Shown here in pieces: positions 1-15,949 of a stretch of DNA of 64,000 nt. Within the stretch, counting starts at the first letter, position 1. Every line of letters begins with the position of its first letter. The position numbers and the translations under genes were made by a program. Where the stretch lies: assembly GCF_014201195.1 (NCBI RefSeq), contig NZ_JACHDS010000001.1, positions 3,224,001 through 3,288,000 of the forward strand, given 5' to 3'. A model generated the notes under the pieces. That model was given only the letters and a program-made list of their open reading frames with translations. It searched no databases and was not told where the DNA came from. Source of the DNA: Nocardiopsis mwathae. GTDB taxonomy: Bacteria > Actinomycetota > Actinomycetes > Streptosporangiales > Streptosporangiaceae.

Positions 1-2
1 TC

Positions 3-65
3 TCACCCGCCGCAACGGACCCGCTCGCCCACTCGGCCCCGCAGATCGCCCAGGTCGCCAGGTGA
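3..65 (+). CDS. 3' end of an unidentified upstream gene (partial)
   Basis: The first bases form an open frame that runs in from outside the window and stops at TGA 63-65; its last residues read QIAQVAR. The stop overlaps the GTG start of the next gene as GTGA (62-65), a typical translational-coupling arrangement, and this overlap is the main reason to believe the frame is real. Only 20 residues are visible, too few to name a family. Confidence 0.4.
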   Translation, partial: SPAATDPLAHSAPQIAQVAR

Positions 66-934
66 GCGCGACCGGCCGTCCGACGCGGACCGCGCCCACC
101 CGCCGCTCCCTCTCCGGCCCCGACGCGCTGGCCGACAGCCTGGCGGGTGCGGTGGCGGAGGTGGGCGGACTGCTGCGTGCGTGGCGCAGTGACGCCCGGG
201 CGACACAGGGGACCTGGGAGGGGAGCCAGTTCAAGGCGGAGGCCGACACGCGGGCACACGAGGCGCTGTGCGCGCGGCTGCGGGAGATCGACCCGGGCAT
301 CCCCGTGGTCAGCGAGGAGGATCCGGGGTCGCTGCGCGGCGACCGGCCGCCGCGCTACTGGCTGATCGACCCGATCGACGGAACCGCCAGCTACGCGCAC
401 GGCTACCCGGGCTACGTCACCCAGGCCGCGCTGATGATCGGCGGGCGGCCCGCGCTGGCCGCCATCTGCGCCCCCGAGGCCGATGTGCTGTACACGGCGG
501 TGCGCGGGCGGGGCTCCGCCGCCAACGGGCGGCCGCTGCCACCCACCGCCCGCGCCGCCCCGGGGTCGGGCGTGCTGATCGACAACACCCCCGAGCCGCA
601 CGGGATCGCCCGCGAGGTGGGTGAGCGGTTCGGGTACACGCGGTACCGGGAGTGCGGCAGCATCTCGCTGAAGCTGTGCCGGGTCGCCGAGGGGGAGGCG
701 CACCTGTTCGTCAAGGACGTGCCGGTACGCGACTGGGACGTCGCCGCACCCGACCTGGTGCTGGCCGAGGTCGGCGGCCACCTGAGCCGGCTCGACGGCA
801 CCCCGTTCGCCTACCGCGGCGGCTTCCAGCACAGCGGGCTGGTCGGCGCGGCCGACCCGGGGACGGGCGCCGAAGTCGCGGCATGGTGCGCGGCGCGGCC
901 GTCCGCCGACACCGACGCGGCCGATCCCCCCTGA
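62..934 (+). CDS. inositol monophosphatase / CysQ-like 3'(2'),5'-bisphosphate nucleotidase family protein
   Basis: This is a 290-residue protein of the Mg-dependent, Li-sensitive phosphatase family, whose members remove a phosphate from inositol phosphates, histidinol phosphate or 3'-phosphoadenosine 5'-phosphate. The metal-binding signatures are visible: SEED at residues 84-87, DPIDGT at 103-108 and the C-terminal WDVAAPD at about 225-231, all in the expected order and spacing. The N-terminal 20 or so residues are a low-complexity, Arg/Thr-rich extension. The GTG start overlaps the stop of the preceding frame, so the two are probably co-translated. Which substrate is used cannot be read from the sequence; histidinol phosphatase or inositol-phosphate phosphatase are alternatives to CysQ. 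Confidence 0.85.
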   Translation: MSATGRPTRTAPTRRSLSGPDALADSLAGAVAEVGGLLRAWRSDARATQGTWEGSQFKAEADTRAHEALCARLREIDPGIPVVSEEDPGSLRGDRPPRYWLIDPIDGTASYAHGYPGYVTQAALMIGGRPALAAICAPEADVLYTAVRGRGSAANGRPLPPTARAAPGSGVLIDNTPEPHGIAREVGERFGYTRYRECGSISLKLCRVAEGEAHLFVKDVPVRDWDVAAPDLVLAEVGGHLSRLDGTPFAYRGGFQHSGLVGAADPGTGAEVAAWCAARPSADTDAADPP

Positions 935-1025
935 GCCGGGACCCGCGGGGGTGCCGCCGGATGTCCTACTTCGGCCGTACGGCCGATCTGGACCTCCGGC
1001 GGAGGAAAGCCGCATTCCCAGCGGA

Positions 1026-1031
1026 CTAGCA
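1026..1031 (+). promoter_or_regulatory. candidate -10 box TAGCAT
   Basis: TAGCAT matches the actinobacterial TAnnnT -10 pattern and lies about 94 nt before the ATG at 1125, in the only sizeable gap before the DUF1707 genes. It would give a leader of roughly 85 nt. No convincing -35 is seen. Confidence 0.35.
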
Positions 1032-1124
1032 TGGCGGTGAGGTGGCCGCCGTTTCCCCACGGGAACACCCGCCCGGGCCGGGGCGGCGCGTGCGGCGGTG
1101 CAGGTACGAGGAGGGGCCGGGAGC

Positions 1125-1604
1125 ATGAGTTCCGATATCACACCGCACAGCGGCATGCGCGCGTCCGACGCCGACCGCGACGCGGTGGCGCAGCGGCTGG
1201 CCTCGGCGCTGTCGGAGGGGCGGCTCGACCTCGCCGAGTACGAGCGCCGCCTGGACACGGCCATGACCGCGACCGTCATGGGCGAACTTCAGCCCCTCAC
1301 CGCCGATCTGCCGACACCCGCGCGCCCCGAGGAGCAGCCCGTCGACCTGGCCGCGGTGGGCGAGCGGGACGCCGCCCCGTCGGCGTGGCGCGAATGGTTC
1401 GACGAGTGGCGCTGGTGGCTGGGCGGCGCGATCATCATGATCGGGATCTGGGGCGCCACCAGCCTGAGCGCCGGGGAGTTCCAGCACTTCTGGCCGGCCA
1501 TCCCGCTGGGCATCTGGGCCGCCATCCTCATCGCCCATGTCGTCTTTCCGTCCGACCATGGCAAGAAGAGGGACAGGAAAGACAAAGAAGACGACTGGTA
1601 CTGA
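1125..1604 (+). CDS. DUF1707 domain membrane protein (first of a tandem pair)
   Basis: The protein has 159 residues. Its N-terminal 55 residues carry the DUF1707 signature (MRASDADRDAVAQRL, then EGRLDLAEYERRLDTA), a small helical domain seen at the N-terminus of many actinobacterial membrane proteins. After a linker, a Trp-rich segment (FDEWRWWLGG) leads into two predicted membrane helices, followed by a charged Lys/Asp-rich tail. ATG 1125 is chosen because GAGGGG stands about 9 nt upstream and the conserved domain begins soon after; an in-frame GTG at 1098 is possible but lacks a binding site. It is paralogous to the next gene. The molecular function is unknown. Confidence 0.8.
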   Translation: MSSDITPHSGMRASDADRDAVAQRLASALSEGRLDLAEYERRLDTAMTATVMGELQPLTADLPTPARPEEQPVDLAAVGERDAAPSAWREWFDEWRWWLGGAIIMIGIWGATSLSAGEFQHFWPAIPLGIWAAILIAHVVFPSDHGKKRDRKDKEDDWY

Positions 1605-1747
1605 GGGCGAAGGACCTCGTCGGGGGGCCGGAAGTCCGTGGGCGGCGCGGCCGCCGCGACATGACTCTGGCGGAACCGGTGCCTTTTCTCGGCCCGGCCC
1701 GCGGCGTATCGTGAGTGTCGCCAGCATCCTGCCGCAGGGGGTGGGCG

Positions 1748-2197
1748 TTGGACGACGATCGCGTCCCGGAAAGCCAGATGCGCGCCTCGGACGCCGACCG
1801 CGATGCTGTGGCCGAACGGCTCGCGACGGCCCTCACCGAGGGCCGACTCGACCTGGCCGAGTACGAGCTCCGGCTCGACAGGGCGATGCACGCGGTCGTC
1901 CTCGGTGAGCTGCGGGCCCTGACGGCCGACCTCCCGGTGCCTCCGGAACCCGCGGACGAGTCGGACGGCGACCTCGTCGCCGCGGGGCGGGCCGCCCTGT
2001 CGCCCTGGCGGGACTGGGTGGACGAGTGGCGCTGGTGGCTGGGGGGCGCCGTGATCATGACCGGGATCTGGGGCGTCACCAGCATCATGGGGGGCGCTCT
2101 GCTCCCGTTCTGGCCGCTGGTCCCACTGGGGATCTGGGCCGCCATCCTGGTCGCCGCGGCCATCTGGCCGGATGAGAGCACCGGCAGCCGCACGTGA
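1748..2197 (+). CDS. DUF1707 domain membrane protein (second of a tandem pair)
   Basis: This 149-residue paralogue of the preceding gene keeps the same order: DUF1707 (MRASDADRDAVAERL, EGRLDLAEYELRLD), acidic linker, WVDEWRWWLGG motif, then two predicted membrane helices. The strongest identity is in the DUF1707 block and around the Trp-rich motif; the linker and tail differ, and the charged C-terminal tail of the first copy is missing. I prefer TTG 1748, preceded by a GCAGGGGG site; an in-frame GTG at 1715 would add 11 residues with no visible ribosome-binding site. The pair probably arose by tandem duplication and may interact through the membrane segments, which is inference. Confidence 0.75.
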   Translation: MDDDRVPESQMRASDADRDAVAERLATALTEGRLDLAEYELRLDRAMHAVVLGELRALTADLPVPPEPADESDGDLVAAGRAALSPWRDWVDEWRWWLGGAVIMTGIWGVTSIMGGALLPFWPLVPLGIWAAILVAAAIWPDESTGSRT

Positions 2198-2210
2198 GCG
2201 CCGGAGCGGC

Positions 2211-2705
2211 TCAGCCTGCGGCGTGCAGCCAGCGCACCGGGGCGCCGTCCCCGGCGTAGCGGAACGGCTCCAGCTCTTCGTCCCAGACCCGGCCGGTCAG
2301 CCGGTCGAGCTCCTCGGCGAGATCGGCCTCGTGGGCCGCGGCCCGCTCCATGGCGTTGCGCAGCCGCGCCTCCGACACCATGACCTCACCCGACGCACTG
2401 GTCACCGCGGTGAAGATGCCGAGGGTCGGCGTGTAGCTGTAGCGCGCGCCGTCACACCCCACGGTCGCCTCTTCGGTCACCTCGAAGCGCAACCGCTGCC
2501 AGCCGTTCAACGCCGAGGCGATCGCGCCCGAAAGACCGGGAGCCCCCTGCCAGTTCAGCTCGGCACGGTGGGTGCCGGGCGCCGCCGGCTGGTCGTCCCA
2601 GTCGAGTTTCACAGGTACGCCGACCACACCCGCGACCGCCCACTCGACGTGTGGGCACAGCGCCGCGGGCGCGGAGTGGACGTACAAGACGCCACGTGCG
2701 GACAC
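2211..2705 (-). CDS. DUF3145 family protein
   Basis: The 164-residue product matches the actinobacterial DUF3145 family. The N-terminus (RGVLYVHSAPAALCPHVEWAV) is highly characteristic, and the length is typical. No signal peptide or membrane helix is present, so it should be cytosolic; the biochemical role of the family is not known. The GTG start is preceded by an AGGAGG-type ribosome-binding site about 4 nt away. It faces the second DUF1707 gene tail to tail with a 13-bp gap and is divergent from the sigma factor gene, sharing a roughly 235-bp promoter region with it. Confidence 0.9.
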   Translation of the reverse strand: MSARGVLYVHSAPAALCPHVEWAVAGVVGVPVKLDWDDQPAAPGTHRAELNWQGAPGLSGAIASALNGWQRLRFEVTEEATVGCDGARYSYTPTLGIFTAVTSASGEVMVSEARLRNAMERAAAHEADLAEELDRLTGRVWDEELEPFRYAGDGAPVRWLHAAG

Positions 2706-2940
2706 CGAACCTCCTGATACGAACGAGTGCGCTTCCCCGACGCCCTCGTATCCGCAGAGGAGCCGTCCGTGTAGGTATGAGTTCTCCTCGGCCTATTGTG
2801 CCGCATGGACCCCACAGGCACCAGGTCATCGTCGCCCCGAAGATCCGGCTCCTTCTCCGGCTACGGCGGTGACCCTTCGGCTACGGTGATTCCCGTTCTC
2901 CCGTGTGCATGCGGGAGCAGCGAGTCTAGCGGGGGTGCGG

Positions 2941-3531
2941 GTGAGTGACCAGCCCTGGGCGGAGATGGCCACCGGCGAACTGGTGAAGCGAGCGCTGGAC
3001 GACGCCGTGGCGCTGGAGCACCTCATCGCCAGATTCGCCCGCAGGGTCCGCTCGGTGGTGCGCTTCTACGGCATGTCGGTCCACGACGCCCAGGACGCCG
3101 AGCAGACCGTCTGGCTCGGCTTGTGGCAGCACCTCGCGGCGATCCGCACCCCCGAGCATGTCGGCGCGTGGCTTGCCGCAGCCACCCACAACGCCTGCCG
3201 CAAGCAGCTGCGGCTGGCCCGGCGCCTCGCTCTGGCGGACCCCGTCCACCTCGACGCCTTCGACGTCGGCGCGTCCGGGCAGGCGCGTACGCCCGAGGAG
3301 CACCTGCTGGCCGCGGAACGGCGCCGCCGCGTCCGTGCGGCCATCCTGGAGCTGGGGGAACCGGACCGGACCATCGCCGTTCTGGAGCTGTGCGGGCCGC
3401 GCTCGCCGGCGGCGTCGGTCGCGGACTTCACCGGTCTGCCCATCGCCGAGGTACCCAATGCGCGGCGCCGTGTCAGACGGCGGCTGCGGCGCCTGCTGAT
3501 CGACGAGCAACACGGCGGGGAGTGTCCGTGA
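2941..3531 (+). CDS. sigma-70 family (ECF-like) RNA polymerase sigma factor of a CHAT-protease locus
   Basis: The product of about 196 residues has the two-domain layout of a small sigma factor: a sigma-2 region (residues about 20-85, with VRFYGMSVHDAQDAEQTVWLGLW and a WLAAATHNACRK segment) and a C-terminal helical region with an HTH-like SVADFTGLPIAEVPNARRRVRRRLRRLL tail. It should redirect RNA polymerase to alternative promoters. GTG 2941 is chosen because GGGGG lies 5 nt upstream; in-frame GTGs at 2905 and 2935 are alternatives. No anti-sigma factor with a zinc-finger or membrane domain follows. Instead two genes follow on the same strand, a small beta-rich protein and a TPR-CHAT protein, suggesting this sigma factor belongs to a dedicated signalling unit. 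Confidence 0.8.
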   Translation: MSDQPWAEMATGELVKRALDDAVALEHLIARFARRVRSVVRFYGMSVHDAQDAEQTVWLGLWQHLAAIRTPEHVGAWLAAATHNACRKQLRLARRLALADPVHLDAFDVGASGQARTPEEHLLAAERRRRVRAAILELGEPDRTIAVLELCGPRSPAASVADFTGLPIAEVPNARRRVRRRLRRLLIDEQHGGECP

Positions 3532-3532
3532 G

Positions 3533-4087
3533 ATGACCGGTGAGGACAGGGCAGGGGCCATGGACGGCCCGCAGCCGCAGGACGGCCGCGCCCGGGCGCA
3601 CGGCGCGGCGCCCGAGGAGCCGTGGGACGCGGTCCTGGACGAACGGATCGCCGGGCTGTGGGGGGAGGGGACCGCCACCGGCGACCCGGCATCGGCCGAG
3701 ATCCGCGCCACCGCCCGCACGGTCTACGCGGCCCGCGCGGAGGGCGGGATCATCGCCGAGGTGGTCAACGACTCCGTGGACGACCCGCCGAGTGACCTGC
3801 GCGCCGTCGCCGACCTCGCGGCCTCCCCCCGCTACGTGCGTTTCCACGCGGCGGGGCTGACGGTGCGGTTGGAGGTCGCGGTCGCCGACGACGGCCGCGA
3901 CATCGTGGGCCGGGTCAGCCCGACCGACGTGACCGGTGTCGAGGTCCGCTGGCCGGGCGGCTCGATGCGGCGGGAGATCGACGAGTCCGGCAGCTTCGCC
4001 GCCCGCGCGGTCCCCCGCGGCCCGGTCAGCATCCGCCTCCACCGCGCCGCCGGACCGTGCGTCAGCACCCCGTGGCTGGCGTACTGA
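3533..4087 (+). CDS. small beta-rich protein between sigma factor and CHAT protein, unknown function
   Basis: ATG 3533 lies 1 nt after the sigma factor stop codon, so the two genes are almost certainly co-translated. The 184-residue product has a charged N-terminal third (about residues 1-75) and a C-terminal half dominated by short alternating hydrophobic stretches (VRFHAAGLTVRLEVAV, DIVGRVSP, GVEVRWPGG, SFAARAVPRGPVSIRL). This is the pattern of a compact beta-sandwich, perhaps immunoglobulin- or transthyretin-like; that fold assignment is inference. There is no zinc-finger or transmembrane anti-sigma signature. Position suggests it modulates the sigma factor or is a partner or substrate of the CHAT protein. 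I do not recognise a named family. Confidence 0.65.
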   Translation: MTGEDRAGAMDGPQPQDGRARAHGAAPEEPWDAVLDERIAGLWGEGTATGDPASAEIRATARTVYAARAEGGIIAEVVNDSVDDPPSDLRAVADLAASPRYVRFHAAGLTVRLEVAVADDGRDIVGRVSPTDVTGVEVRWPGGSMRREIDESGSFAARAVPRGPVSIRLHRAAGPCVSTPWLAY

Positions 4088-4231
4088 AAAAGGACCCGGC
4101 AGGAACGACGGATGGGGACGGGCCGCAGGACGTCCGATCAGCGGCGATTTTCCGACGCACGGTGACGAACGGGACGGTCCGGCCGGTGGATCGCGGATCT
4201 CCCCCTCCCATAACGGGATCACGGGCTGCTA

Positions 4232-4244
4232 TCACTGGCAGTGA
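4232..4244. promoter_or_regulatory. 13-bp perfect palindrome upstream of the CHAT gene
   Basis: TCACTGGCAGTGA is a perfect palindrome around a 3-nt centre, located 85 nt before the CHAT start. A second small hairpin (TCCGCC/GGCGGA, 4248-4263) follows at once. It lies in a 241-bp gap that otherwise shows nothing coding. It could be an operator for a dimeric regulator or the apex of a transcript hairpin. Confidence 0.35.
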
Positions 4245-4328
4245 CGCTCCGCCGACAGGCGGACGGGGACGGACGCTTCGCCGTCCAGGCGTCGCCCAGC
4301 ACGATCGTCGCGTGCGAAAGGCTCTTCG

Positions 4329-6824
4329 ATGGCGGATCCGCAGCATGTCGATGTCCACCTGCCGGTCATGCTCGTCGCACGGGACCCGCGCCGGGCGCGG
4401 ACGCGCGCCGAGCGCATGCTCGCCGACTCCCCGGAGCCCGTGACCAGAGCCGTTGCGCTGCGCATCCTCGGGGTGGCGCAGCGGGAGTTCGGTGACACCG
4501 CCGGCGCGCACCGGACCCTGCGCATGGCGGCGGCCGTCGCGACCCGGGCGGGGGCCGACGAGCACGCAGCGCACGCCCGGACGTCGCGCCTGGGTCTGCT
4601 GGCGCTGCGCGGTGGCGGCGGGGTGGCCGGGGCCGCACTGGACCGCATGGCGGCGTCCACCCCGTCGACCCGCGCACCGGCACTGCTCCACCAGGGTGTC
4701 GCGGCCGCCCAGCGCGGGCATTTCGGTCCGGCCCTCGCCTTCTTCGACGCCGCACTCGCCGAACTGGGCCGCGGCGCCTACGACCGGATGCTGCCGGGCG
4801 TACTCAGCAACCGCGGGCTGGCGCTGATGTACTCCGGCCGCCTGGAGGAGTCGGCCGAGGACCTGCACCGGGCGCTGGCGCTGGCCGAGCGCCACGCGCT
4901 GGACTACCTGCGCGGGATCACCCTGCAGAACCTCGGCTGCCTGGCCACGCGGCGAGGCGACATCTCCGCCGCCGTCGCGAGCTTCCGTAGTGCCGCGCGG
5001 CTGGTGCCCGAGCACCGCGGGGCGGGGCTGCGCCTCGACCACACCGACGCGCTGCTGGCCGCCGGCATGTTCGGCGAGGCCCGAAAGGTCCTCCTCGGCA
5101 CCGCGGTGGAGAGCGCCTACGCGGACGAGATCACCGCCCGGCTGCTGCGCGCCAAGATCCACCTGGGCCGCGAGGAGCGGCGCGCCGCCCGCGACCAGGC
5201 GCTGCGAGTGCGGGCCCGATGCGCCCCGGGCTCGCTGTGGGCACGGCTCGCGGACCAGGTGGCGTGGTCCGCGCTGCACCTCCCGGGAACCGCGCCGGCC
5301 CCCGGGCGGGGCGCGGTTCCCCGCTCTCGGCCTGCCGCGGCGCCACCCGCCGGACCACCCGGCCGCACCGCGGCCGGAGGAGCGGCTCCGGCCCTCGCAC
5401 GCTGTGTGTCCAGCGCGCCGCTGGGTCCGCTGTCCCCGGAGGTGCTCGCCCCGAGGCATGCCGACGCGCTGCGCGCGATCGCCGCGGGCGACCACGTCGG
5501 GGCGCGGCGTGAACTGCTGCGCGCGGCGGACGACGGCCCGCAGGAGGCCCCGGCCGTGCACCACCTGGAGTTGCTGGCCCACCAGCACGCCCATGAGCGC
5601 GAGGTGGCGGCCGCCGGGGCGCGCGGCGCGCTGGACCAGGGGAACGCCGCTGCCGCCCTGGACTGGGTCGAGCACGGACGCGCGCTCTTCAGCGTCCCCG
5701 GGCGCTGCCGGGACCGGGCCTGGAAGGGGGTGCTGGACCGGTGCCGGGAGGCGTTCGCACGGGCCCGTAGCGGGGACGACGGCGCCGCGATCGAGCTGCG
5801 GCGGCTCACCGCCGTCCTCGGCCCTGCCCAGTGGCACACGGGCTGCGCCGCCGCGGGGGCGGGAGGTCCGGCGCCCTGGCCCGGCAGCACCGACCTCGCC
5901 GGGCTGCTGGGGCGCCGGGTGCTGGTCTGCTACGCCCAGCCGCACGGTGTCCCGGCCGCGATCACGGTCGTCGACGGGCACGTGGCGGCTCACCCGCTCC
6001 CGCCGCTGCGCGTGATCGAGGACGCCGTGTGCCGGATGAACGGGGTCGCCCGGATGAACTCCCGCGGCGATGCCGCGGACGGTGCGGGCCTCGCCGCGGC
6101 CGCCGCACAGGTCGAGCGGCTTCTGCTCGCCCCGCTCGCCGGGGTTCCCGACGACCGGCCGCTGGTGATCGCGCCGGCGCCGTTCGCCGAGGCGCTGCCG
6201 TGGGGGCTGCTGCCCGCGCTGCGGGGGCGGGAGGTGAGCGTGGTCCCCTCGGGGCGGGCGTGGCTGGCGTGCCGTGCCCGTTCCCGCGCCGTGGCCCACC
6301 GGGCGCCGCGGGCGCTGCTCGCGGCCGGCGGCGACCTGGGAACGGCGGTCGCGGAGGTCCGGTCGCTGCACCGCCGCCATCCCGGGGCCGAGGTGCTCAC
6401 CGGTCCGGACGCCCGGGTGGGCGCGGTGCTGGACGGGCTGGCGCGCTGCGACCTCGCACACATCGTCGCGCACGGACTGGTGCCGGCCGGTGCCCCCATG
6501 CTGTCCGGGCTCGCGCTCGCGGACGGGCCGCTCTTCGCCTACGACCTGGAATCGCTGCCCGAGGTCCCGGCCGTGACGGTGCTGTCCTCGTGCCGTGTGG
6601 GCACGGCCGCCCCCTCGCCGGCGGGCGTGCGGCTGGGTTTCGCCGCGGCGCTGCTCGCTCTGGGCGGAGCCACCGTCGTCGCGGGCGTCCTGCCGGTCCG
6701 CGACCGGGGCACACCGGCCGCCATGGAACGCTTCCATTCCGCCCTCGCCTCGGGTTCCGCCCCGGCCCGAGCGGTCGCCGACCACCTCGCCGACGCCGGC
6801 TTCCTCTGCTTCGGCGCCGGGTGA
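4329..6824 (+). CDS. TPR repeat protein with C-terminal CHAT (caspase-like) protease domain
   Basis: The 831-residue protein has an N-terminal alpha-helical half with tetratricopeptide-like repeats (clear around residues 115-230, e.g. LSNRGLALMYSGRLEESAEDLHRAL and LQNLGCLATRRGD), an Ala/Pro/Gly-rich linker near 325-360, more helical repeats, and a C-terminal CHAT domain from about residue 520. The predicted catalytic dyad is present: His715 in HIVAHG and Cys755 in VLSSCRVG, followed by the typical GFAAALLALGGATVVAGVLPVRD segment. CHAT proteins are clan CD cysteine peptidases; several known ones are activated through their repeat regions to cleave partner proteins. The gene follows the sigma factor and beta-rich protein by 241 bp on the same strand. 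Substrate and trigger are unknown. Confidence 0.85.
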   Translation: MADPQHVDVHLPVMLVARDPRRARTRAERMLADSPEPVTRAVALRILGVAQREFGDTAGAHRTLRMAAAVATRAGADEHAAHARTSRLGLLALRGGGGVAGAALDRMAASTPSTRAPALLHQGVAAAQRGHFGPALAFFDAALAELGRGAYDRMLPGVLSNRGLALMYSGRLEESAEDLHRALALAERHALDYLRGITLQNLGCLATRRGDISAAVASFRSAARLVPEHRGAGLRLDHTDALLAAGMFGEARKVLLGTAVESAYADEITARLLRAKIHLGREERRAARDQALRVRARCAPGSLWARLADQVAWSALHLPGTAPAPGRGAVPRSRPAAAPPAGPPGRTAAGGAAPALARCVSSAPLGPLSPEVLAPRHADALRAIAAGDHVGARRELLRAADDGPQEAPAVHHLELLAHQHAHEREVAAAGARGALDQGNAAAALDWVEHGRALFSVPGRCRDRAWKGVLDRCREAFARARSGDDGAAIELRRLTAVLGPAQWHTGCAAAGAGGPAPWPGSTDLAGLLGRRVLVCYAQPHGVPAAITVVDGHVAAHPLPPLRVIEDAVCRMNGVARMNSRGDAADGAGLAAAAAQVERLLLAPLAGVPDDRPLVIAPAPFAEALPWGLLPALRGREVSVVPSGRAWLACRARSRAVAHRAPRALLAAGGDLGTAVAEVRSLHRRHPGAEVLTGPDARVGAVLDGLARCDLAHIVAHGLVPAGAPMLSGLALADGPLFAYDLESLPEVPAVTVLSSCRVGTAAPSPAGVRLGFAAALLALGGATVVAGVLPVRDRGTPAAMERFHSALASGSAPARAVADHLADAGFLCFGAG

Positions 6825-6892
6825 GGCGCGGCCGGGGCTCGCCGCGGCGCCGTCACGAGTCGCCGTTCCGCCTGTTCGGGATGGCCGGTCGG

Positions 6893-6898
6893 TACCGT
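6893..6898 (+). promoter_or_regulatory. candidate -10 box TACCGT, leaderless promoter of the DUF2203 gene
   Basis: TACCGT ends 6 nt before ATG 6905, so transcription would begin at or within 1 nt of the start codon. The gene has no Shine-Dalgarno sequence, as expected for a leaderless mRNA. Confidence 0.45.
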
Positions 6899-6904
6899 GA
6901 ACCC

Positions 6905-7330
6905 ATGAGCGACGACGATGTTCCCCCGGTCGCGGCCGGAGGGAAGGGCGGACCCGACGAGCCGCACGTGTTCACCCTGGAGGAGGCACGCGCCCTGATG
7001 CCCGAGGTGCGCAAGCACGTCGACGAGTTCGTTCGGCTCCGCGCCGACCTGGCCGAGCACGCCGCCGACCTGCGGATCTCCGGTAGCTCGCCGCTGGGCG
7101 GTGTGCCGGAGCTCAAGGCGATGGAGGCCCGGTTCAGCGAGCTGCACGCCTGGTTCCCCGACCACGGCATCGAGGTGAAGAACCTGGCGCCGGTGCTCAT
7201 CGACTTCCCCGCGCTTCTGGACGGGGCCGCGGTGCGGCTGTGCTGGCTGGAGGGCGAGCCGGAGCTCGCCTGGTACCACCGCAGCGAGCTGGGCTTCATC
7301 GGCCGACGCCCGCTGCCGCGCGACCGCTGA
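6905..7330 (+). CDS. DUF2203 family protein
   Basis: This is a 141-residue cytosolic protein with the DUF2203 hallmarks: FTLEEARALMPEVRKHVDEF near the N-terminus, then a central KNLAPVLIDFPALLDG segment and a C-terminal VRLCWLEGEPELAWYHRSELGFIGRRPL. It is mostly helical with a short, highly conserved C-terminal block. The family is widespread but has no assigned activity. ATG 6905 is chosen because a -10-like box sits just upstream and because the conserved domain starts at about residue 23. The gene converges on the metallo-hydrolase gene across a 177-bp gap. Confidence 0.85.
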   Translation: MSDDDVPPVAAGGKGGPDEPHVFTLEEARALMPEVRKHVDEFVRLRADLAEHAADLRISGSSPLGGVPELKAMEARFSELHAWFPDHGIEVKNLAPVLIDFPALLDGAAVRLCWLEGEPELAWYHRSELGFIGRRPLPRDR

Positions 7331-7380
7331 ACCCCCGCCCGGGCCGTCGATCCCGGCAAAGTGCTCCGGATGCCGCCGGT

Positions 7381-7406
7381 GGTCGGCAGTGGTCGGCAGT
7401 GGTCGG
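7381..7406. repeat. 10-bp direct repeat, about 2.6 units
   Basis: GGTCGGCAGT is repeated head to tail twice and partly a third time, in the gap between the convergent DUF2203 and metallo-hydrolase genes. No function is visible; slippage within GC-rich intergenic DNA is the simplest explanation. Confidence 0.5.
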
Positions 7407-7507
7407 TGCGCGCCACCGAGATCGGCGCCGGACCCGGTGGCGGCGCGGCGGGCCCCCGGCGCCCCGGCGCGGTCTCCGCGGGGGCGTCGGGGGCCCGGAA
7501 CGGGTGG

Positions 7508-8161
7508 TCACCAGCCGCGATCGCGCCACTCTCCCAGGTGCGGGCGTTCCGCCCCGAGCGTGGTGTCCTTACCGTGGCCCGGATAGACCCATGTGTCGTC
7601 GGGCAGCACGGCGAAGACGCGCTCATCCACGTCGTCGATCAGGGACCGGAAGTCCTCCGGCGCCCAGGTCTTGCCGACGCCTCCGGGGAACAGGCTGTCC
7701 CCGGTGAACAGGTGGGTGCACCCGTGCGGGTCGTCGTAGCGCAGGGCGATCGAGCCGGGGGTGTGGCCGCGCAGGTGGATGACCTCCAGGGCGCACTCGC
7801 CGACGGGGATCCGCTGGCCGTGCTCGACCGGTTCGTCCACCGACACCGGCAGCTCTCCCGCGTCCGCCGGGTGGGCGACGGTCCGGGCACCGGTCGTGCC
7901 GACGACTTCGGCCAGTGCCTGCCAGTGGTCGTGGTGGCGGTGGGTGGTGACCACCCGTTGCAGCCCCCCGTCGCCGACGAGTTCGAGGAGGCGGTCGGCC
8001 TCGTTGGCGGCATCGATGAGCACCGCGTCCCCGGTGCGCCGGCAGCGCAGCAGGTAGGCGTTGTTGTCCATCGGCCCCACGGCGAGCTTGGCGATGAGGA
8101 GCTCGGGCAGTTCGCGTATGTCGGCGGGCCCACCGACCCGCGTATCTCCGGAATAACTCAC
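7508..8161 (-). CDS. MBL-fold metallo-hydrolase (glyoxalase II-like)
   Basis: The 217-residue protein carries the metallo-beta-lactamase motif THRHHDHW at about residues 93-100, a second metal ligand in the GHTPGSIAL segment, an Asp ligand in FTGDSLFPGGVGK and a His in VYPGHGKDT. The family binds two metal ions and hydrolyses thioesters, lactones or similar bonds; the FTGDxLF and PGHG motifs resemble glyoxalase II-type hydrolases. It has no signal peptide. It starts with GTG 8161, whose upstream bases contain a TGTAAT box overlapping the 3' end of the crotonase gene, so it may have its own leaderless transcript as well as read-through from upstream. Confidence 0.88.
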   Translation of the reverse strand: MSYSGDTRVGGPADIRELPELLIAKLAVGPMDNNAYLLRCRRTGDAVLIDAANEADRLLELVGDGGLQRVVTTHRHHDHWQALAEVVGTTGARTVAHPADAGELPVSVDEPVEHGQRIPVGECALEVIHLRGHTPGSIALRYDDPHGCTHLFTGDSLFPGGVGKTWAPEDFRSLIDDVDERVFAVLPDDTWVYPGHGKDTTLGAERPHLGEWRDRGW

Positions 8162-8167
8162 GCCCCC

Positions 8168-8173
8168 ATTACA
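8168..8173 (-). promoter_or_regulatory. candidate -10 box TGTAAT before the metallo-hydrolase gene
   Basis: On the minus strand TGTAAT ends 6 nt before GTG 8161 and there is no ribosome-binding site. The box overlaps the stop codon of the upstream crotonase gene (8169-8171). Confidence 0.35.
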
Positions 8174-8960
8174 GCACCCAACGCGGAGGGCGCTTCGCGA
8201 AGAAGGCCTCGCGTCCCTCCGCAGCGTCGTCGCTGCCGAAGAATTCGCGGGACAGCTCGCCCATTTCGGCGAAGGCGGACGCGCGCTTGTGCCCGTCGGG
8301 CCCGCTCAGCAGCGCCTTGGTGCGGGCTAGGGCGCGCGGTGCGCCCTTGCGCAGCCCGTCGAGGATCTCCTCGGTGTACGCGTGGAGCCGGTCGGCGGGC
8401 ACGGCGGCGGTCAGCAACCCGGCCTCGGCGGCGGCGCGGGCGTCGAACGTCTCACCGGTGAGGAAGTAGCGGCCGAGCTGGCGGTCGTGCATGCGCGCGG
8501 CCACAGGGACGGAGATGATGGCCGGGACCACCCCGATGCGCACCTCGGTGAAGGCGAAGGTGGCGTCCTCCGGCGCGACGGCGATGTCGGCCGCGGCGAC
8601 CAGCCCGATGCCTCCGGCGCGGGCCGGGCCGTTGAGCCGGGCGACGACCGGCTTGTCGGCGTCCATGATCGCGGAGAACAGCTCGGGCATGCCGGGCGCC
8701 GCGGGGTCGGGCTCCCGGCCGGCACGCTCGGCGGCGACCTCCTTGAGGTCGGCTCCGGCGCAGAAGGCGGGGCCGGATGCGGTGAGGAGGACCGCCCGCA
8801 CGGCGTCGTCGGCCAGGGCCGCGGCCAGGCCGTCGGCGAGCTCGGTGCGCAGCCGCGCCGAGAGCGCGTTGCGGTTGTGCGGGGAGTCCAGGGTGAGGGT
8901 CGCGATGCCCCTCTCCGTGCTCCGGCGCACCAGCGGCGTGGTGGATTCCACCATGTTCAT
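8169..8960 (-). CDS. enoyl-CoA hydratase/isomerase (crotonase) family protein
   Basis: The 263-residue protein is a standard-length crotonase. It shows the CoA-binding, oxyanion-hole segments SGPAFCAGADL (about residues 65-75) and NGPARAGGIGLVAAADIAVA (about 115-134), then FAFTEVRIGVVPA. In classical hydratases two Glu residues are catalytic; here the position after GG in the second motif is not Glu (GGIGL), whereas the Glu in FTEVRIG is kept. It may therefore be an isomerase, lyase or a specialised hydratase rather than the beta-oxidation enzyme; some annotators would call it methylglutaconyl-CoA hydratase-like. ATG 8960 is preceded by a GGAAAGGG site. The metallo-hydrolase gene follows with a 7-bp gap. 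Confidence 0.85.
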   Translation of the reverse strand: MNMVESTTPLVRRSTERGIATLTLDSPHNRNALSARLRTELADGLAAALADDAVRAVLLTASGPAFCAGADLKEVAAERAGREPDPAAPGMPELFSAIMDADKPVVARLNGPARAGGIGLVAAADIAVAPEDATFAFTEVRIGVVPAIISVPVAARMHDRQLGRYFLTGETFDARAAAEAGLLTAAVPADRLHAYTEEILDGLRKGAPRALARTKALLSGPDGHKRASAFAEMGELSREFFGSDDAAEGREAFFAKRPPRWVL

Positions 8961-9101
8961 CTCGCCCTTTCCGTCGTTCCGTGAACGTCGTCGTCCTCGT
9001 CATGACCTCCGTCGATCCCGGGGGCGGCGACCGTGGTCCGGCACGCGTCCGGTCGGTGTCCCCGAGATCGGCGGACGGGGTGGGCACGGGGCCCGGTGCG
9101 C

Positions 9102-9169
9102 CTAGGGCGTGTCCGACGGATCATTCCCGGCTCGCGGCCACCGGAAAGCATCCGCCCAACACGCCCTAG
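9102..9169. repeat. 68-bp miniature inverted repeat with CTAGGGCGTGT ends
   Basis: The two ends are perfect 11-bp inverted repeats, CTAGGGCGTGT at 9102-9112 and its complement at 9159-9169, and the pairing continues imperfectly inward (ggat...atcc, ttcc...ggaa). The right end contains the TAG stop codon of the peroxiredoxin gene. The right arm, read on the minus strand, matches the first 27 bases of another copy at 15659 with one mismatch. It looks like a MITE or IS end and may form a transcript hairpin for the peroxiredoxin mRNA. Confidence 0.7.
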
Positions 9170-9630
9170 TCGCGCAGGGCCCGCAGGGCGCGCAGGGCGC
9201 CCTCGGCGTGCGCCTGCATGCGGATCTCGCTCCTGACGACGTGCAGCACCCGGCGGTCGGTGCCGATGACGAAGGTCGTGCGCCGGGTCGGCGCCACCGC
9301 CGACAGCACGCCGCCGCGGCGTACCCCGTAGAGGTCGGCGACGGTGCCGCCGACGTCGGACAGGAGGGGGAAGTCGAGCCCGTGGGCGCGGGCGAAGTCC
9401 GACTGGCGGCCGACCGGGTCGGCGCTGATCCCGATCCGCTGGGCGCCGCGTTCGGCGAACTCCGCACCCAGATCCCTGAAGTGGCAGCTCTCGGCGGTGC
9501 ACCCGGGCGTCATCGCGGCCGGGTAGAAGAACAGTACGGCGGGGCCGACCGCCAGCAGGTCGGTGAGCCGCCGGGGAACGCCGTCCTGGTCGGGCAACTC
9601 GAAGTCGGGGGCGTGCGCTGCGATGTCCAC
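9166..9630 (-). CDS. thioredoxin-dependent peroxiredoxin, BCP/PrxQ type
   Basis: The 154-residue protein has the peroxiredoxin active site in FYPAAMTPGCTAESCHF: the peroxidatic Cys44 and a resolving Cys49 five residues later, the spacing typical of atypical 2-Cys BCP/PrxQ enzymes. Thr41 and Pro42 of the catalytic pocket are also present. The enzyme should reduce hydroperoxides with thioredoxin in the cytosol. GTG 9630 is preceded by a TAGGGT box 7 nt away and no ribosome-binding site, so a leaderless transcript is likely. The stop codon lies inside the arm of a miniature inverted repeat. Confidence 0.92.
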   Translation of the reverse strand: MDIAAHAPDFELPDQDGVPRRLTDLLAVGPAVLFFYPAAMTPGCTAESCHFRDLGAEFAERGAQRIGISADPVGRQSDFARAHGLDFPLLSDVGGTVADLYGVRRGGVLSAVAPTRRTTFVIGTDRRVLHVVRSEIRMQAHAEGALRALRALRD

Positions 9631-9637
9631 GCCGCAA

Positions 9638-9643
9638 ACCCTA
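9638..9643 (-). promoter_or_regulatory. candidate -10 box TAGGGT, leaderless promoter of the peroxiredoxin gene
   Basis: TAGGGT on the minus strand ends exactly 7 nt before GTG 9630. Its first three bases are the TAG stop codon (9641-9643) of the upstream phosphodiesterase gene, so the peroxiredoxin promoter is embedded in the end of its neighbour. Confidence 0.5.
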
Positions 9644-10792
9644 GGCCACCGTCGTCACCCGCAACAGGGGCACCCTCAGTTCCACGGGGGTGAGCGACCC
9701 GTGCTGGCCGACCAGGGAGCTCTCGACCGGCTCGGCCTTGGGGGCGACCAGCGCGGTGTCGCCGTGGGCCAGCGCCAGGACGTCGCCGATGCGCGCCCGT
9801 ACACCGTCGTCGACCGCGCCGAACAGGCCCCGGGCGATCGCCTCGTCACGGGTGACGACCTCGGCCGACCCGGCGAGGCGCTCCCGCCACGCGGCCAGGA
9901 CGTCGTCGGCCGCGCCTTCGCGGGCGTAGACCTGCCGGACCCGGGCCTCCCCCGCCAGGACCCGCACACCCGCGCTGAGGGCGGGGTCGGACTCGACGTC
10001 GATGCGGGTGTCGGGGCCGGTGTCGACCATGCCGTGGTCGGCGGTGATGTAGAGGGCGGAGTCGGGCGGCAGTGCGGCCGCGATCTGCTCGGCCAGGCGG
10101 TCCACGTGCCCCAGGTGCAGCCGCCAGTAGGCGGAGTCCACCCCGAACATGTGGCCGTAGGAGTCGAGGTCGGGGTGGTAGACGAAGGCCAGCGCGCGGT
10201 CGGCTGCGGTGAGCGCGGCGCGTGTCCGGACCGCGAGCTCGGTGATGTCGTTCGCGGCGAGGTAGCGGCTGCCGCGCGCCGAGGCCCGGCTCAGCCCGCC
10301 GCCCTCGAACGCGCCGGCCGCGACGTAGGAGGCGGCCACCCCGGCCCGCTCGGCGCGCTCGTAGACGGTGGCGCGGGGCTGCCACGCCTCGGGGTCGACG
10401 TCGGGGTCCCAGCGGAGCTGGTGCAGGATGCGGTCGGTGCCCGGGATGGCGACCTGCAGGCCGATGACGCCGTGGTGGCCGGGCGACAGGCCGGTGCCGA
10501 GTGTGGTGAGACTGGTGGCGGTGGTCGTGGGGAACGCGGCGGTGATCGGGGCGGCCGCGTCGATCAGCGAGGACAGGAAGGGGGCGCTGCCCCGGTTGGC
10601 GAGGAGCGGCTCCCAGCCCATGCCGTCGACCAGCAGGACACAGGCCCGGCGGACCGGGGGCAGCTCCAGGGGGCCGCTCTCCCCCGGCACGCCGAGCGAG
10701 GCCAGGACCGACGGGCTCAGGTCGGCGAGCGAGGCGCCGCCGTAGCGCGGGGACTCGAACGGGGGCACGGACGCGGCCGCGGGCGTGTTCAT
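9641..10792 (-). CDS. alkaline phosphatase superfamily phosphodiesterase/nucleotide pyrophosphatase
   Basis: The 383-residue protein belongs to the type I phosphodiesterase/nucleotide pyrophosphatase branch of the alkaline phosphatase superfamily. Metal and nucleophile motifs are visible: LLVDGMGW with Asp56, FPTTTATSLTTLGTG around residues 88-102 carrying the Thr nucleophile, HPDLDSYGHMFG around 206-217, and ITADHGMVDTG near 249-259. No signal peptide or membrane helix is seen, so it is probably cytosolic. It hydrolyses phosphodiester or pyrophosphate bonds, but the physiological substrate cannot be named. ATG 10792 has an AGGTGG site upstream. It lies just upstream of the peroxiredoxin gene, 10 bp apart. 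Confidence 0.88.
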   Translation of the reverse strand: MNTPAAASVPPFESPRYGGASLADLSPSVLASLGVPGESGPLELPPVRRACVLLVDGMGWEPLLANRGSAPFLSSLIDAAAPITAAFPTTTATSLTTLGTGLSPGHHGVIGLQVAIPGTDRILHQLRWDPDVDPEAWQPRATVYERAERAGVAASYVAAGAFEGGGLSRASARGSRYLAANDITELAVRTRAALTAADRALAFVYHPDLDSYGHMFGVDSAYWRLHLGHVDRLAEQIAAALPPDSALYITADHGMVDTGPDTRIDVESDPALSAGVRVLAGEARVRQVYAREGAADDVLAAWRERLAGSAEVVTRDEAIARGLFGAVDDGVRARIGDVLALAHGDTALVAPKAEPVESSLVGQHGSLTPVELRVPLLRVTTVA

Positions 10793-10906
10793 CGGGATGA
10801 TCCACCTGCTCTCGGACCGGGTCGCGGACCGGTGCCCGGGACACCGGTCCGCGACCGAGCGGTTGGCGCTGTCGTCGTGGTCTGCCGGGCCGCCGCGGCC
10901 GCACCG

Positions 10907-11503
10907 TCACGGACGGGCGGTGGCCTCCGACAGCACGTTGGCGAAGTTGACCATGGTGGCCACGGAGTCGGTGCCGTCCGCGGCCTGGCTCACCCGCAGG
11001 GTCAGCGGTTCGGCGGTGATGGCGCCGGTGTAGCCGTGGTCGAGCTCGCAGGACTCGTCCGCGCACGATGCGGGTTCGAGGTCGATGTGGGCGATGGCGC
11101 CCCAGTTGACGTTGAGGCTGATGCTCAGCACCACCTCGCCGGGCAGGCTGCCGGGCGCGTAGTTGGCGGGGTCGGCCACCACCCGGGTCAGCGCGACGGA
11201 CTGGATGTTGCCGATCCGGATGGAGTCGGTGGTGGTGGAGGCGTGCGGGCGTCCGTTCCCCTCCGCCGGCGGGTGTTCGTCGGTGTGGCAGACGATCAGC
11301 CGCGTGGGGGTGAGGAGCAGGACGGTGGTGTGCCGCCGCATCTCCATCGCGGGATCGAAGATGGCCTCGTGGTGCACCACGAAGGCCTCGGCGGTCTCGT
11401 TGCCGAGAGCTGTGGCGACGGCATCGATCACGAGACCGGGGTAGTACCCGCTGCGCTCGATCTCCGAACGCCAGTCGGTGGGCACGGCACGCGTTTTCCT
11501 CAT
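10907..11503 (-). CDS. DUF5998 family protein
   Basis: The 198-residue protein is recognisable as the actinobacterial DUF5998 family, beginning DWRSEIERSGYYPGLV and containing EAFVVHHEAIFDPAMEMRRHTTVLLLTPTRLIVCHTDE and a C-terminal LRVSQAADG block. The many short hydrophobic strands suggest a mixed alpha/beta or PH-like cytosolic fold; no activity is known. ATG 11503 is chosen because the family N-terminus begins within ten residues and a purine-rich GGAAGAGGGCAGGATGGAG stretch precedes it. It is upstream of the phosphodiesterase gene on the same strand with a 114-bp gap, a pairing that may be functional but cannot be shown here. Confidence 0.85.
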   Translation of the reverse strand: MRKTRAVPTDWRSEIERSGYYPGLVIDAVATALGNETAEAFVVHHEAIFDPAMEMRRHTTVLLLTPTRLIVCHTDEHPPAEGNGRPHASTTTDSIRIGNIQSVALTRVVADPANYAPGSLPGEVVLSISLNVNWGAIAHIDLEPASCADESCELDHGYTGAITAEPLTLRVSQAADGTDSVATMVNFANVLSEATARP

Positions 11504-11621
11504 GTCTCCATCCTGCCCTCTTCCGGCAGCAGATCGCATCCCGCGTCCACAAGGCGCGCCGCCCGGTGGGTGGCCCGCCGGGCACGGGTAACCGGAAACG
11601 ATCCGGGGTAGGGCCGTCGGC

Positions 11622-11804
11622 ATGAACGCGACTGTGCCACCGGTACCGATACCGGATCCGCCCGGACCGCAGCCGCCGGGTCCGGGGCCGGTGCCGCCCG
11701 AGCCGACACCGGCACCGCCCGAGCCGCCGATGCCCGAACCGGGCCCGGGGCCGGGCCCCGGGCCGCTGCCGCCGGAACCGGAGCCCGAGCCCCGCCCCGC
11801 CTGA
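11622..11804 (+). CDS. possible small proline-rich protein (60 aa)
   Basis: An ATG-initiated frame encodes 60 residues, more than half of them proline, glycine or glutamate (repeated PxPPEP and PGPGPG). It sits between two minus-strand genes on the opposite strand. There is no strong ribosome-binding site. In GC-rich DNA such frames arise by chance, although strongly proline-repetitive composition with a defined start and stop can also mark a real surface or scaffold peptide. I list it as doubtful. Confidence 0.25.
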   Translation: MNATVPPVPIPDPPGPQPPGPGPVPPEPTPAPPEPPMPEPGPGPGPGPLPPEPEPEPRPA

Positions 11805-11850
11805 CCGCGGCCCGCGGCGCGGGCGTGTGCGTGTGTGTGCGGCACCCGGG

Positions 11851-14577: not shown

Positions 14578-14584
14578 GGTTTTG

Positions 14585-14590
14585 AGCCTA
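14585..14590 (-). promoter_or_regulatory. candidate -10 box TAGGCT, leaderless promoter of the Pat-type gene
   Basis: TAGGCT on the minus strand ends 7 nt before GTG 14577; there is no Shine-Dalgarno sequence. This supports the shorter start rather than an ATG at 14622. Confidence 0.5.
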
Positions 14591-14675
14591 AACGAGAACC
14601 GCCCGGGGGTGACCAACCCCACGCCTGCGATTCGCGGTCTGCCACTTCGTTACCCGCAGCCCCCCTCAGACCTGT

Positions 14676-14681
14676 TAACGT
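14676..14681 (+). promoter_or_regulatory. candidate -10 box TAACGT for the PfkB kinase gene
   Basis: TAACGT precedes an ATG at 14685 by only 3 nt, so transcription would probably start inside or after that codon. This favours the ATG at 14760 with a leader of about 70 nt. The region is a divergent promoter shared with the Pat-type gene. Confidence 0.35.
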
Positions 14682-14759
14682 CGCATGGCAGGCGTTCTTA
14701 ACGGGCACGAATGCGCGCGGTACCCGCGGAACACGGGCGGCAAGGCGGTGGGTGAAGCA

Positions 14760-15662
14760 ATGGCACGAGTGGTAGTGATCGGCGATCTCATGACCGACGC
14801 TGTCGCGAGGGCTTTCCACCCGCTGGCCCGCGGCAGCGACACCCCCGCGTCGGTCATCACCTACGGCGGTGGATCGGGCGCGAACGTCGCGGCGTGGCTG
14901 GCGATCGAAGGCACCGAGACCACATTCGTCGGGCGACGCGGATCCGATATCACCGGGCGGACCCGCGAGATGGAGCTGATGGGCTACGGCATCGACTCCC
15001 GGCTGGTCATGGACCCGGAGCGGCCCACGGGCACCTGCGTGGTGATGATCACGCACCGGGGCGACCGCACGATGCTCAGCGACCCCGGCGCCAACGCCCG
15101 GCTGCAGCCCGAGGACCTGCCGCGCGACGTCTTCGGCCCCGACGGCCACCTGCACGTCTCCGGTTACACGCTGATCAACGACGACTCCCGGCGCGCGGCC
15201 CGCATGGCGCTGCGCATGGCGCGGGAGACGGGCATGTCGATCTCGGTCGACGGCGGCTCGCACGCCCCGCTGGAACGCGCGGGCGCCGAGAACTACCTGG
15301 ACTGGACCAACGGCGCCCGGCTCCTGTTCGCCAACAGCGACCAGGCCCGCGTTCTGACCGGCCGCGACGAGCCCGAGGCCGCGGCAAAGGTGCTCACCGC
15401 CTGGTTCCCCAACGTCGTCATCAAGATGGGTGACGAGGGTGCGCTGTGGGCGTCCAAGACCCGCGACGACATCGTCACCGTCCCCGCAGAGCCGGTGGAG
15501 CCCTCCCCCGGATCGATCGGTGCGGGTGACGCGTTCATCGCCGGGTTCCTGCCTCCCTGGCTCGCCGGCCGCCACCCCAAGGACGCCCTGGGCCACGCCC
15601 AACTGCTGGCCGCCCGCGCCCTCCACCAGCCCGGCGCCCGCCCCGACCTCGGCGACTCCTAG
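14760..15662 (+). CDS. PfkB/ribokinase family sugar or nucleoside kinase
   Basis: The 300-residue protein is a typical PfkB kinase. The N-terminal VVVIGDLMTDAVAR strand, the substrate-side YGGGSGANVAAWLA motif (PfkB signature 1, about residues 37-50) and the C-terminal PGSIGAGDAFIAGF motif with catalytic Asp257 are all present. It should phosphorylate a sugar or nucleoside hydroxyl with ATP in the cytosol; adenosine kinase- or ribokinase-like substrates are possible but not decidable. Upstream in-frame ATG 14685 and GTG 14748 are alternatives; 14760 places the first beta-strand at the N-terminus as is usual. It is divergent from the Pat-type gene, and its stop codon lies inside a dispersed repeat end. 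Confidence 0.87.
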   Translation: MARVVVIGDLMTDAVARAFHPLARGSDTPASVITYGGGSGANVAAWLAIEGTETTFVGRRGSDITGRTREMELMGYGIDSRLVMDPERPTGTCVVMITHRGDRTMLSDPGANARLQPEDLPRDVFGPDGHLHVSGYTLINDDSRRAARMALRMARETGMSISVDGGSHAPLERAGAENYLDWTNGARLLFANSDQARVLTGRDEPEAAAKVLTAWFPNVVIKMGDEGALWASKTRDDIVTVPAEPVEPSPGSIGAGDAFIAGFLPPWLAGRHPKDALGHAQLLAARALHQPGARPDLGDS

Positions 15663-15930: not shown

Positions 15931-15949
15931 GCCCGGTCGGGTTCCGTGG

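What the first reader, a model, noticed from the sequence alone, without database searches (positions are those of the whole stretch)
2941..6824. Sigma factor - beta-rich protein - TPR/CHAT protease locus, a possible uncharacterised signalling or conflict system
Three same-strand genes, the first two 1 nt apart, encode an ECF-like sigma factor with no recognisable anti-sigma factor, a 184-residue beta-rich protein, and an 831-residue TPR-CHAT protein with both predicted catalytic residues (His715, Cys755). CHAT peptidases with repeat domains are known to be switched on by partner proteins. The inference is that the CHAT protein cleaves a regulator (perhaps the small protein) to release or destroy the sigma factor, an analogue of regulated proteolysis of anti-sigma factors. 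A 13-bp palindrome before the CHAT gene may add separate control.
Basis: partly seen in the sequence, partly recalled or inferred. Interest (0 to 1): 0.75.

Follow-up and report, generated by a model that had tools for sequence, protein, structure and literature searches.

The report
Caspase-like protease and sigma factor cluster
This is a conserved actinobacterial gene cluster in which a caspase-like protease sits beside a transcription switch and a small partner protein, so that cutting the partner may turn genes on; the kind of cluster has been noted in print, but how it works is untested here.

Summary
In detail: ECF-like sigma (2941-3531), a 184-aa small protein (SML, 3533-4087) and an 831-aa TPR-CHAT protein (4329-6824; His715/Cys755). 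The grouping is not chance: 47 of 49 hand-picked family loci hold sigma, SML and CHAT, and in 295 other genomes drawn across the phylum all 22 with this CHAT type are among the 29 with SML. Starting from the subtilase, 66 of the 80 nearest loci hold the other three. Catalytic residues are kept. A 2022 review already describes sigma group ECF54 with CHAT, subtilase and 'carboxypeptidase' neighbours and proposed proteolytic control. That 'carboxypeptidase' is probably SML (27 of 61 homologues match CarboxypepD_reg). I favour SML as a cytosolic anti-sigma factor cut by CHAT, like Csx29/Csx30/CASP-sigma. No functional step is shown; a covariation test gave no signal. The window is a three-gene variant at a fixed chromosomal site; a conflict role is not supported.

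The parts
2941..3531 (+). ECF-like sigma factor, probably group ECF54; alternative starts 2905 and 2935
   Evidence: Pfam Sigma70_r2 3.4e-10; TIGR02937 1e-15; profile hit 206 bits in own genome, next best 76
3533..4087 (+). SML, 184-aa soluble partner: two N-terminal helices (31-42, 55-68), linker, Ig/FN3-like beta sandwich (about 97-184); candidate anti-sigma factor and protease substrate
   Evidence: Match in 127 of 150 family genomes and 30 of 296 phylum genomes, own included; model; fold; CarboxypepD_reg in 27 of 61 homologues, not in the window copy
4329..6824 (+). TPR-CHAT protein, predicted caspase-like cysteine peptidase, dyad His715/Cys755
   Evidence: PF12770 3.8e-22; dyad invariant; model; nearest folds Csx29, separase, DdvA
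4088..4328 (+). SML-CHAT gap typical of the subtilase-less loci (80 nt or more in 16 of 17 gene-called; median -4 in 21 subtilase-bearing loci)
4232..4244 (.). 13-bp palindrome TCACTGGCAGTGA, possible operator for the CHAT gene
   Evidence: TCAC-N5-GTGA also in the gaps of L032 and L134 (19 gaps looked at)

Best explanation
The three genes are a subtilase-less branch of a widespread actinobacterial sigma/protease system, most likely sigma group ECF54. In the resting cell SML, made in step with sigma from the same message, holds sigma inactive (inferred). A signal sensed through the TPR part switches on the CHAT peptidase (inferred from TPR-CHAT relatives). CHAT cuts SML, most likely in the linker between its helical part and its beta sandwich, and sigma is freed to transcribe its targets (inferred). 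In the four-gene form the subtilase acts with CHAT, probably as a two-protease cascade (inferred). Shown by computation: the gene set, its linkage, the intact catalytic residues, the predicted folds, and the absence of the subtilase from the locus throughout one clade that holds the window. Not shown: binding, cleavage, signal and regulon.
For: Genome level: with own genome left out, all 22 CHAT genomes (E<=1e-60) are among the 29 SML genomes (E<=1e-3) of 295, hypergeometric 1.8e-27 with phylogeny ignored. Where the SML locus lacks the proteases, a strong CHAT match lies elsewhere in G267, G235, G311, G191, G338 and G385, next to and divergent from an S8 match in the first five. Sigma and SML are the tightest pair: 4-nt overlap in 29 of 70 gene-called pairs (one of the 70, L119, proved to be an opposite-strand pair with another sigma), 4 loci with only these two, and one sigma-SML fusion ORF in Actinosynnema sp. 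ALI-1.44, L184 (sequence). Sigma then partner is where an anti-sigma gene usually sits (established knowledge). Catalytic residues kept: CHAT H and C 140/140 ORFs; S8 H, N, S 128/128, D 128/129. Precedents: Csx29 (TPR-CHAT) cuts Csx30, which inhibits an ECF-type sigma (PMC10028731, passages); CalpL cuts anti-sigma CalpT bound to ECF CalpS (PMC11417357, passages). Csx29 is the top Foldseek match of the CHAT model, E 8.8e-12.
Against: SML matches no known anti-sigma family: no Pfam or NCBIfam hit for the window copy, HxxxCxxC zinc motif in 0 of 61 homologues, no PDB structure at E<=0.001. Covariation between sigma and SML in 116 pairs (Neff 73) equals its within-cluster null (0.2242 against mean 0.2233, maximum 0.2265 of 30 shuffles). 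[quoted passage not shown] In the window's clade CHAT is uncoupled from sigma-SML by a gap. Five loci hold SML without this sigma (L045, L103, L108, L117, L119; L117 is a 6.8-kb contig). The CHAT protein also resembles DdvA, itself an anti-sigma factor.
Confidence: 0.45

Rival explanations
1. CHAT (and the subtilase, where present) degrade or clip the sigma factor itself, keeping it off until the proteases are inhibited; SML is an adaptor or a guard.
For: [quoted passage not shown]
Against: It leaves no clear role for the co-translated SML, the most constant companion of sigma; both worked-out protease/ECF precedents that I saw cut the inhibitor, not sigma.
Confidence: 0.2
2. The proteases are effectors, not sensors: sigma, held by SML, drives expression of CHAT (and the subtilase), which then cut other cell proteins, a stress or self-killing response.
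For: A GTATCA element lies upstream of the subtilase in 13 of 30 divergent CHAT/subtilase gaps against a shuffled mean of 0.69 (maximum 3 in 200 shuffles; related genomes not independent), as an autoregulated promoter might. The subtilase has matches to PADLOC subtilase (3.3e-8, 6e-6) and IetS models, and CHAT a weak one to BovA (9.1e-5).
Against: No GTATCA-N14/15-GACTC site lies at the window locus (one in the genome, elsewhere); that form gave 11 sites in 10 genomes against 4 for the backward control, 3 of the 11 at these loci. A fixed site in the family fits regulation better than killing.
Confidence: 0.2
3. The TPR-CHAT protein is itself the anti-sigma factor, as in DdvA, and SML is its ligand or release factor.
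For: The only CHAT protein among the 51 PDB sequences that the CHAT profile hits at E<=0.001 is DdvA (8rot/8rw5, 5.7e-9; titled a transmembrane anti-sigma factor), and the aligned DdvA residues include the CHAT His and Cys.
Against: DdvA is a membrane protein with further regions; in this system the CHAT gene is the separable part and sigma-SML the constant part.
Confidence: 0.1

Closest known systems
ECF54 sigma-factor group (Huang 2015 and Casas-Pastor 2021, seen only as cited in PMC8999054; neither is held)
   Same: ECF sigma without a recognised anti-sigma; conserved neighbours with CHAT, subtilase and 'carboxypeptidase' domains; control by proteolysis proposed
   Different: The window genome has no match to the subtilase profile (the same profile rings in 10 of 10 other genomes); the 'carboxypeptidase' looks like a non-enzymatic beta-sandwich partner that may be the missing anti-sigma; the group's own sigma model could not be run
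Csx29/Csx30/CASP-sigma of type III-E CRISPR (Craspase)
   Same: TPR-CHAT peptidase, ECF-type sigma and a sigma-binding third protein in one locus; best fold match of the CHAT model
   Different: No RAMP (Cas7-like) match in the genome and no clustered repeats in window 1-16000; SML (184 aa) is far smaller than the 565-aa Csx30, and the SML profile hits no Csx30 chain in the PDB at E<=10
CalpL/CalpT/CalpS
   Same: Soluble protease, anti-sigma and ECF sigma trio (PMC11417357, passages)
   Different: Lon-type protease switched by cyclic tetra-adenylate, not TPR-CHAT
Myxococcus DdvA/DdvS
   Same: CHAT domain linked to an ECF sigma; DdvA holds the aligned His and Cys
   Different: There the CHAT-bearing protein is itself a transmembrane anti-sigma factor (title; passages of PMC4374960)

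Membership tests
ECF54 | ECF sigma, regions 2 and 4 | tested here: met
   Region 2 Pfam 3.4e-10, ECF superfamily model over residues 36-197 of 208; Pfam calls no region 4 in the window copy, and in L065 region 4 is below cut-off
ECF54 | CHAT protein in the context | tested here: met
ECF54 | Subtilase in the context | tested here: not met
   None in the window locus nor any profile match in the genome; present in 26 of 49 family loci. Context is a correlate, not the phylogenetic definition of the group, so I write 'probably ECF54', not 'is'
ECF54 | Carboxypeptidase-type neighbour | tested here: inconclusive
   CarboxypepD_reg in 27 of 61 SML homologues at E<=0.1, best 1.6e-7; none in the window copy
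ECF54 | Assignment by the group's own sigma model | not testable with these tools
   ECF group models not on hand; the two source papers are not held
Type III-E Craspase (Csx29) | Cas7-11 effector and CRISPR array | tested here: not met
   No RAMP match in the whole genome while 4 of 14 control genomes ring; no clustered direct repeats in window 1-16000
CHAT peptidases (clan CD) | Caspase-like fold and His/Cys dyad | tested here: met
   Model (separase 5fc2_B Z 26.2, rmsd 3.1 over 298 residues); dyad 140/140. Peptidase activity itself not testable
Zinc (ZAS) anti-sigma factors | HxxxCxxC motif (recalled) | tested here: not met
   0 of 61 SML homologues
DdvA-type anti-sigma | Transmembrane segment and sigma-binding domain on the CHAT protein | tested here: inconclusive
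   One hydrophobic stretch (19-residue mean 2.07) not located or examined further; no sigma-binding domain called by Pfam

The most novel reading that the evidence does not exclude
ECF54 sigma factors do have an anti-sigma factor: the small helical/Ig-like protein read as a 'carboxypeptidase'. It is cut by a caspase-like TPR-CHAT peptidase in a CRISPR-independent chromosomal circuit, fed by a subtilase-CHAT cascade, which the window's clade reduced to a single protease. This would be a free-living counterpart of the Csx29/Csx30/CASP-sigma module.
Probability: 0.4. Interest if true: 0.75.

Novelty: new variant of a known kind. Interest (0 to 1): 0.5.

Why it matters
Protease-released ECF sigma factors fed by CHAT or Lon peptidases were shown in CRISPR settings. 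Here is what looks like a chromosomal, CRISPR-free form spread over actinobacteria, with a natural experiment: one clade lacks the subtilase at the locus. If SML is the substrate, an open question about ECF54 (how a sigma with no known anti-sigma is controlled) becomes a purified three-protein assay.

Tried and rejected
Sigma-SML covariation: no signal above the within-cluster null, so neither support nor refutation. Promoter search: the strong conserved blocks upstream of sigma in the subtilase-less clade look like the leader and promoter of the divergent DUF3145 gene, not a sigma promoter. No conserved dyad in SML-CHAT gaps (best 7 of 19, shuffles 5-6). The GTATCA element is not at the window locus and weak genome-wide, and it was not consistent in the split genomes. 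Sigma-70-type promoter and terminator scans of 2700-7000: none. Rfam at gathering scores, window 1-12000: none. SML fold search: best Foldseek E 1.1e-2, VIA Z up to 8.9 over 79 residues, read only as a common beta-sandwich; a known anti-sigma fold was not among the rows shown, which excludes nothing. 'Mobile defence system' set aside: SML has no hit in 50,697 phage records (one query, L061 copy); in plasmids (one query, L110 copy) the only hit is an 11.85-Mb Nonomuraea record, which is chromosome-sized. Literature: ten searches, in open-licence papers only. The search for 'ECF54' or 'DdvA' listed 30 of 51 papers, every listed one with 0 occurrences of ECF54; PMC8999054, which has the term, was not among the 30 shown. 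So I cannot say that no experimental ECF54 paper exists.
Full report
What is there. Three same-strand genes: an ECF-like sigma factor (2941-3531; alternative starts 2905, 2935), a 184-aa protein that I call SML (3533-4087) and an 831-aa TPR-CHAT protein (4329-6824). Sigma and SML are 1 nt apart; CHAT follows after 241 nt. Upstream and divergent is DUF3145; downstream on the same strand is DUF2203. The genome has one CHAT match, no match to the profile of the subtilase described below (that profile rings in 10 of 10 other genomes), and 18 matches to the sigma profile, of which the window gene scores 206 bits and the next 76.

Is it more than chance? SML has a match in 127 of 150 genomes of the window's family. 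I took 48 wider stretches around SML matches from that family, picked by hand for score, spread and contig length, not drawn at random. With the window these are 49 loci, scanned by six-frame profile search: 26 hold subtilase, sigma, SML and CHAT; 21 sigma, SML and CHAT; 1 sigma and SML (L137, a 9-kb stretch at a contig end); 1 SML alone (L045). One CHAT call is partial, at a contig end (L040, 33 bits). Of 32 loci from other families, 23 have sigma, CHAT and subtilase around the SML match, 1 lacks only the subtilase, 4 have sigma only, 4 have none. In four of the 32 (L129-L132) SML is weak: 23-25 bits in three, and in L130 nothing in the six-frame scan against 24 bits in the gene call. The reverse test started from the subtilase alone in named genomes. 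Of these 80, 66 have sigma, SML and CHAT; 6 CHAT only, 4 none, 2 sigma and SML, 1 sigma, 1 SML; some misses are short contigs. Loci with all four include Actinomadura (L147), Nonomuraea (L165), Streptosporangium (L163), Planobispora (L166), Saccharopolyspora (L185), Lentzea (L197), Dactylosporangium (L210) and an Acidimicrobiia MAG (L193).

Genome-level co-occurrence. In 296 genomes drawn across the phylum, SML (E<=1e-3) occurs in 30 and this CHAT type (E<=1e-60, a cut-off that I chose) in 23; all 23 are among the 30. With own genome left out this is 22 of 22 within 29 of 295, hypergeometric 1.8e-27, which ignores phylogeny. The seven other SML genomes are five of family f19 with weaker CHAT proteins in or near the locus, G428 with a broken one, and G418. 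Ten genomes whose SML locus lacked one or more partners, or was broken, were searched whole. Strong CHAT matches lie away from SML in G267, G235, G311, G191, G338 and G385, and next to an S8 match on the opposite strand in the first five. In G332 the CHAT is in the same locus, in G428 it is broken, and G060 and G418 have only weaker matches (71 and 22 bits). So the set behaves as two modules, sigma-SML and CHAT-subtilase.

The missed partner. The gene before sigma in many relatives is a subtilase (PF00082: 4.1e-24 and 8.7e-27 in two copies of the S8-sigma-SML-CHAT order, 4.5e-15, 1.6e-19 and 1e-17 in three of the divergent order). No signal peptide is evident in the one copy looked at (first 60 residues, L065). 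Its catalytic His, Asn and Ser are kept in 128 of 128 ORFs and Asp in 128 of 129, the exception being L116 (ORFs of at least 100 bits with a residue at the column). A quick CHAT tree of 50 loci needs two changes: one at the base of an 18-row clade that holds the window (SH-aLRT 100) and one in L054. The chosen outgroup was not one side of a branch and L052 is a long branch, so the tree is a guide. Absence was judged within the fetched stretch, and genome-wide only for the window's genome. In subtilase-bearing loci SML and CHAT often overlap (11 of 21 at exactly -4), while in 16 of 17 subtilase-less loci the gap is 80 nt or more (gene calls).

The proteins. CHAT: AlphaFold2 model pLDDT 86.2, pTM 0.87. 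Foldseek ranks Csx29 first (8eey, E 8.8e-12), then separases and DdvA (8rw5, 3.6e-11). VIA-align: Z 28.2 with Craspase TPR-CHAT 7y84_C (rmsd 11.8 over 477, a flexible whole-length match), Z 26.4 with 7xc7_D (rmsd 4.0 over 370, residues 373-831), Z 26.2 with separase 5fc2_B (rmsd 3.1 over 298). His715 and Cys755 columns read H and C in 140 of 140 ORFs. SML: model pLDDT 81.3, pTM 0.63; low-confidence N-terminus, helices 31-42 and 55-68, then a beta sandwich from about 97. The sandwich resembles many Ig/FN3-like folds without a clear relative. The family motif DPVPxxVxxAARAA falls at the second helix. SML is soluble by hydropathy and has no zinc motif (0 of 61). Pfam's CarboxypepD_reg, a domain that is not itself a peptidase (established knowledge), matches 27 of 61 homologues.

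How it most likely works. SML looks like the partner of sigma. Their frames overlap by 4 nt in 29 of 70 gene-called pairs (one of the 70, L119, is an opposite-strand pair with another sigma); the pair occurs without the proteases nearby in 4 loci; and one ORF in Actinosynnema sp. ALI-1.44 (L184) carries both (a sequencing fault is not excluded). The order sigma then partner is the usual order sigma then anti-sigma (established knowledge). Two protease/ECF systems have been worked out: Csx29 cuts the sigma inhibitor Csx30 (PMC10028731, passages), and CalpL cuts the anti-sigma CalpT (PMC11417357, passages). I therefore favour: SML holds sigma; TPR-CHAT, once activated, cuts SML; sigma is freed. 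The subtilase, where present, probably acts in a cascade with CHAT. All of these functional steps are inference. Against: no anti-sigma family match, no covariation signal, five SML loci without this sigma, and the proposal in print that peptidases degrade sigma itself.

What is known. [quoted passage not shown] its Table 2 gives a Geodermatophilus protein as model. The two primary sources are not held. Our quartet matches that description if the 'carboxypeptidase' is SML. So the kind of system is known on paper. What I did not see in the passages that I could read: the subtilase-less variant and its clade, the two-module genome-level linkage, the intactness counts, and the view that the 'carboxypeptidase' is a beta-sandwich partner and the candidate anti-sigma factor. 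DdvA shows a second way for a CHAT protein to control an ECF sigma (title; PMC4374960 passages).

Conflict or housekeeping? In the family the locus mostly sits at one place, near DUF3145 (34 DUF3145 matches over the 41 loci), apart from divergent-order paralogues such as L053, L060 and L061. PADLOC gives only weak matches. SML is not found in phages, and the single hit in the plasmid collection is a chromosome-sized record. The genome has no RAMP match. I read this as a resident regulatory circuit; a stress or self-killing output remains possible.

Verdict. Observation confirmed; interpretation partly supported; a new variant of a known kind; interest 0.5.

Noticed in passing
window 2700-2830 (minus strand, upstream of DUF3145 at 2211-2705): The DUF3145 leader is strikingly conserved at nucleotide level in most of the 19 subtilase-less loci aligned (TACGAACGAGTGCGCTTCCCCGACGCCCTCGTA and ATTGTGCC...GCACCAGG blocks). 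It may be a promoter plus leader or an N-terminal extension; no Rfam match at gathering score.
   Followed up: partly
divergent CHAT/subtilase gaps, e.g. L053, L060, L133, L141: A (T)GTATCA element, in several loci followed about 14-16 nt later by GACTCT-like sequence, upstream of the subtilase: GTATCA in 13 of 30 gaps against a mean of 0.69 in shuffles. Possible sigma promoter of the divergent-order loci; weak genome-wide.
   Followed up: partly
L184:8912-9730 (+), Actinosynnema sp. ALI-1.44: One ORF matches both the sigma and the SML profile (273 aa), a natural fusion unless a sequencing fault.
   Followed up: partly
L121 (G246), 7240-18402: Two sets of SML, CHAT and subtilase genes lie side by side, with one sigma gene called.
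   Followed up: no
L053:5362-6990 (minus): A Ser/Thr protein kinase gene follows SML in this paralogous locus.
   Followed up: no
window 1098-1604 and 1715-2197: Two DUF1707 genes in tandem, perhaps a duplication.
   Followed up: no
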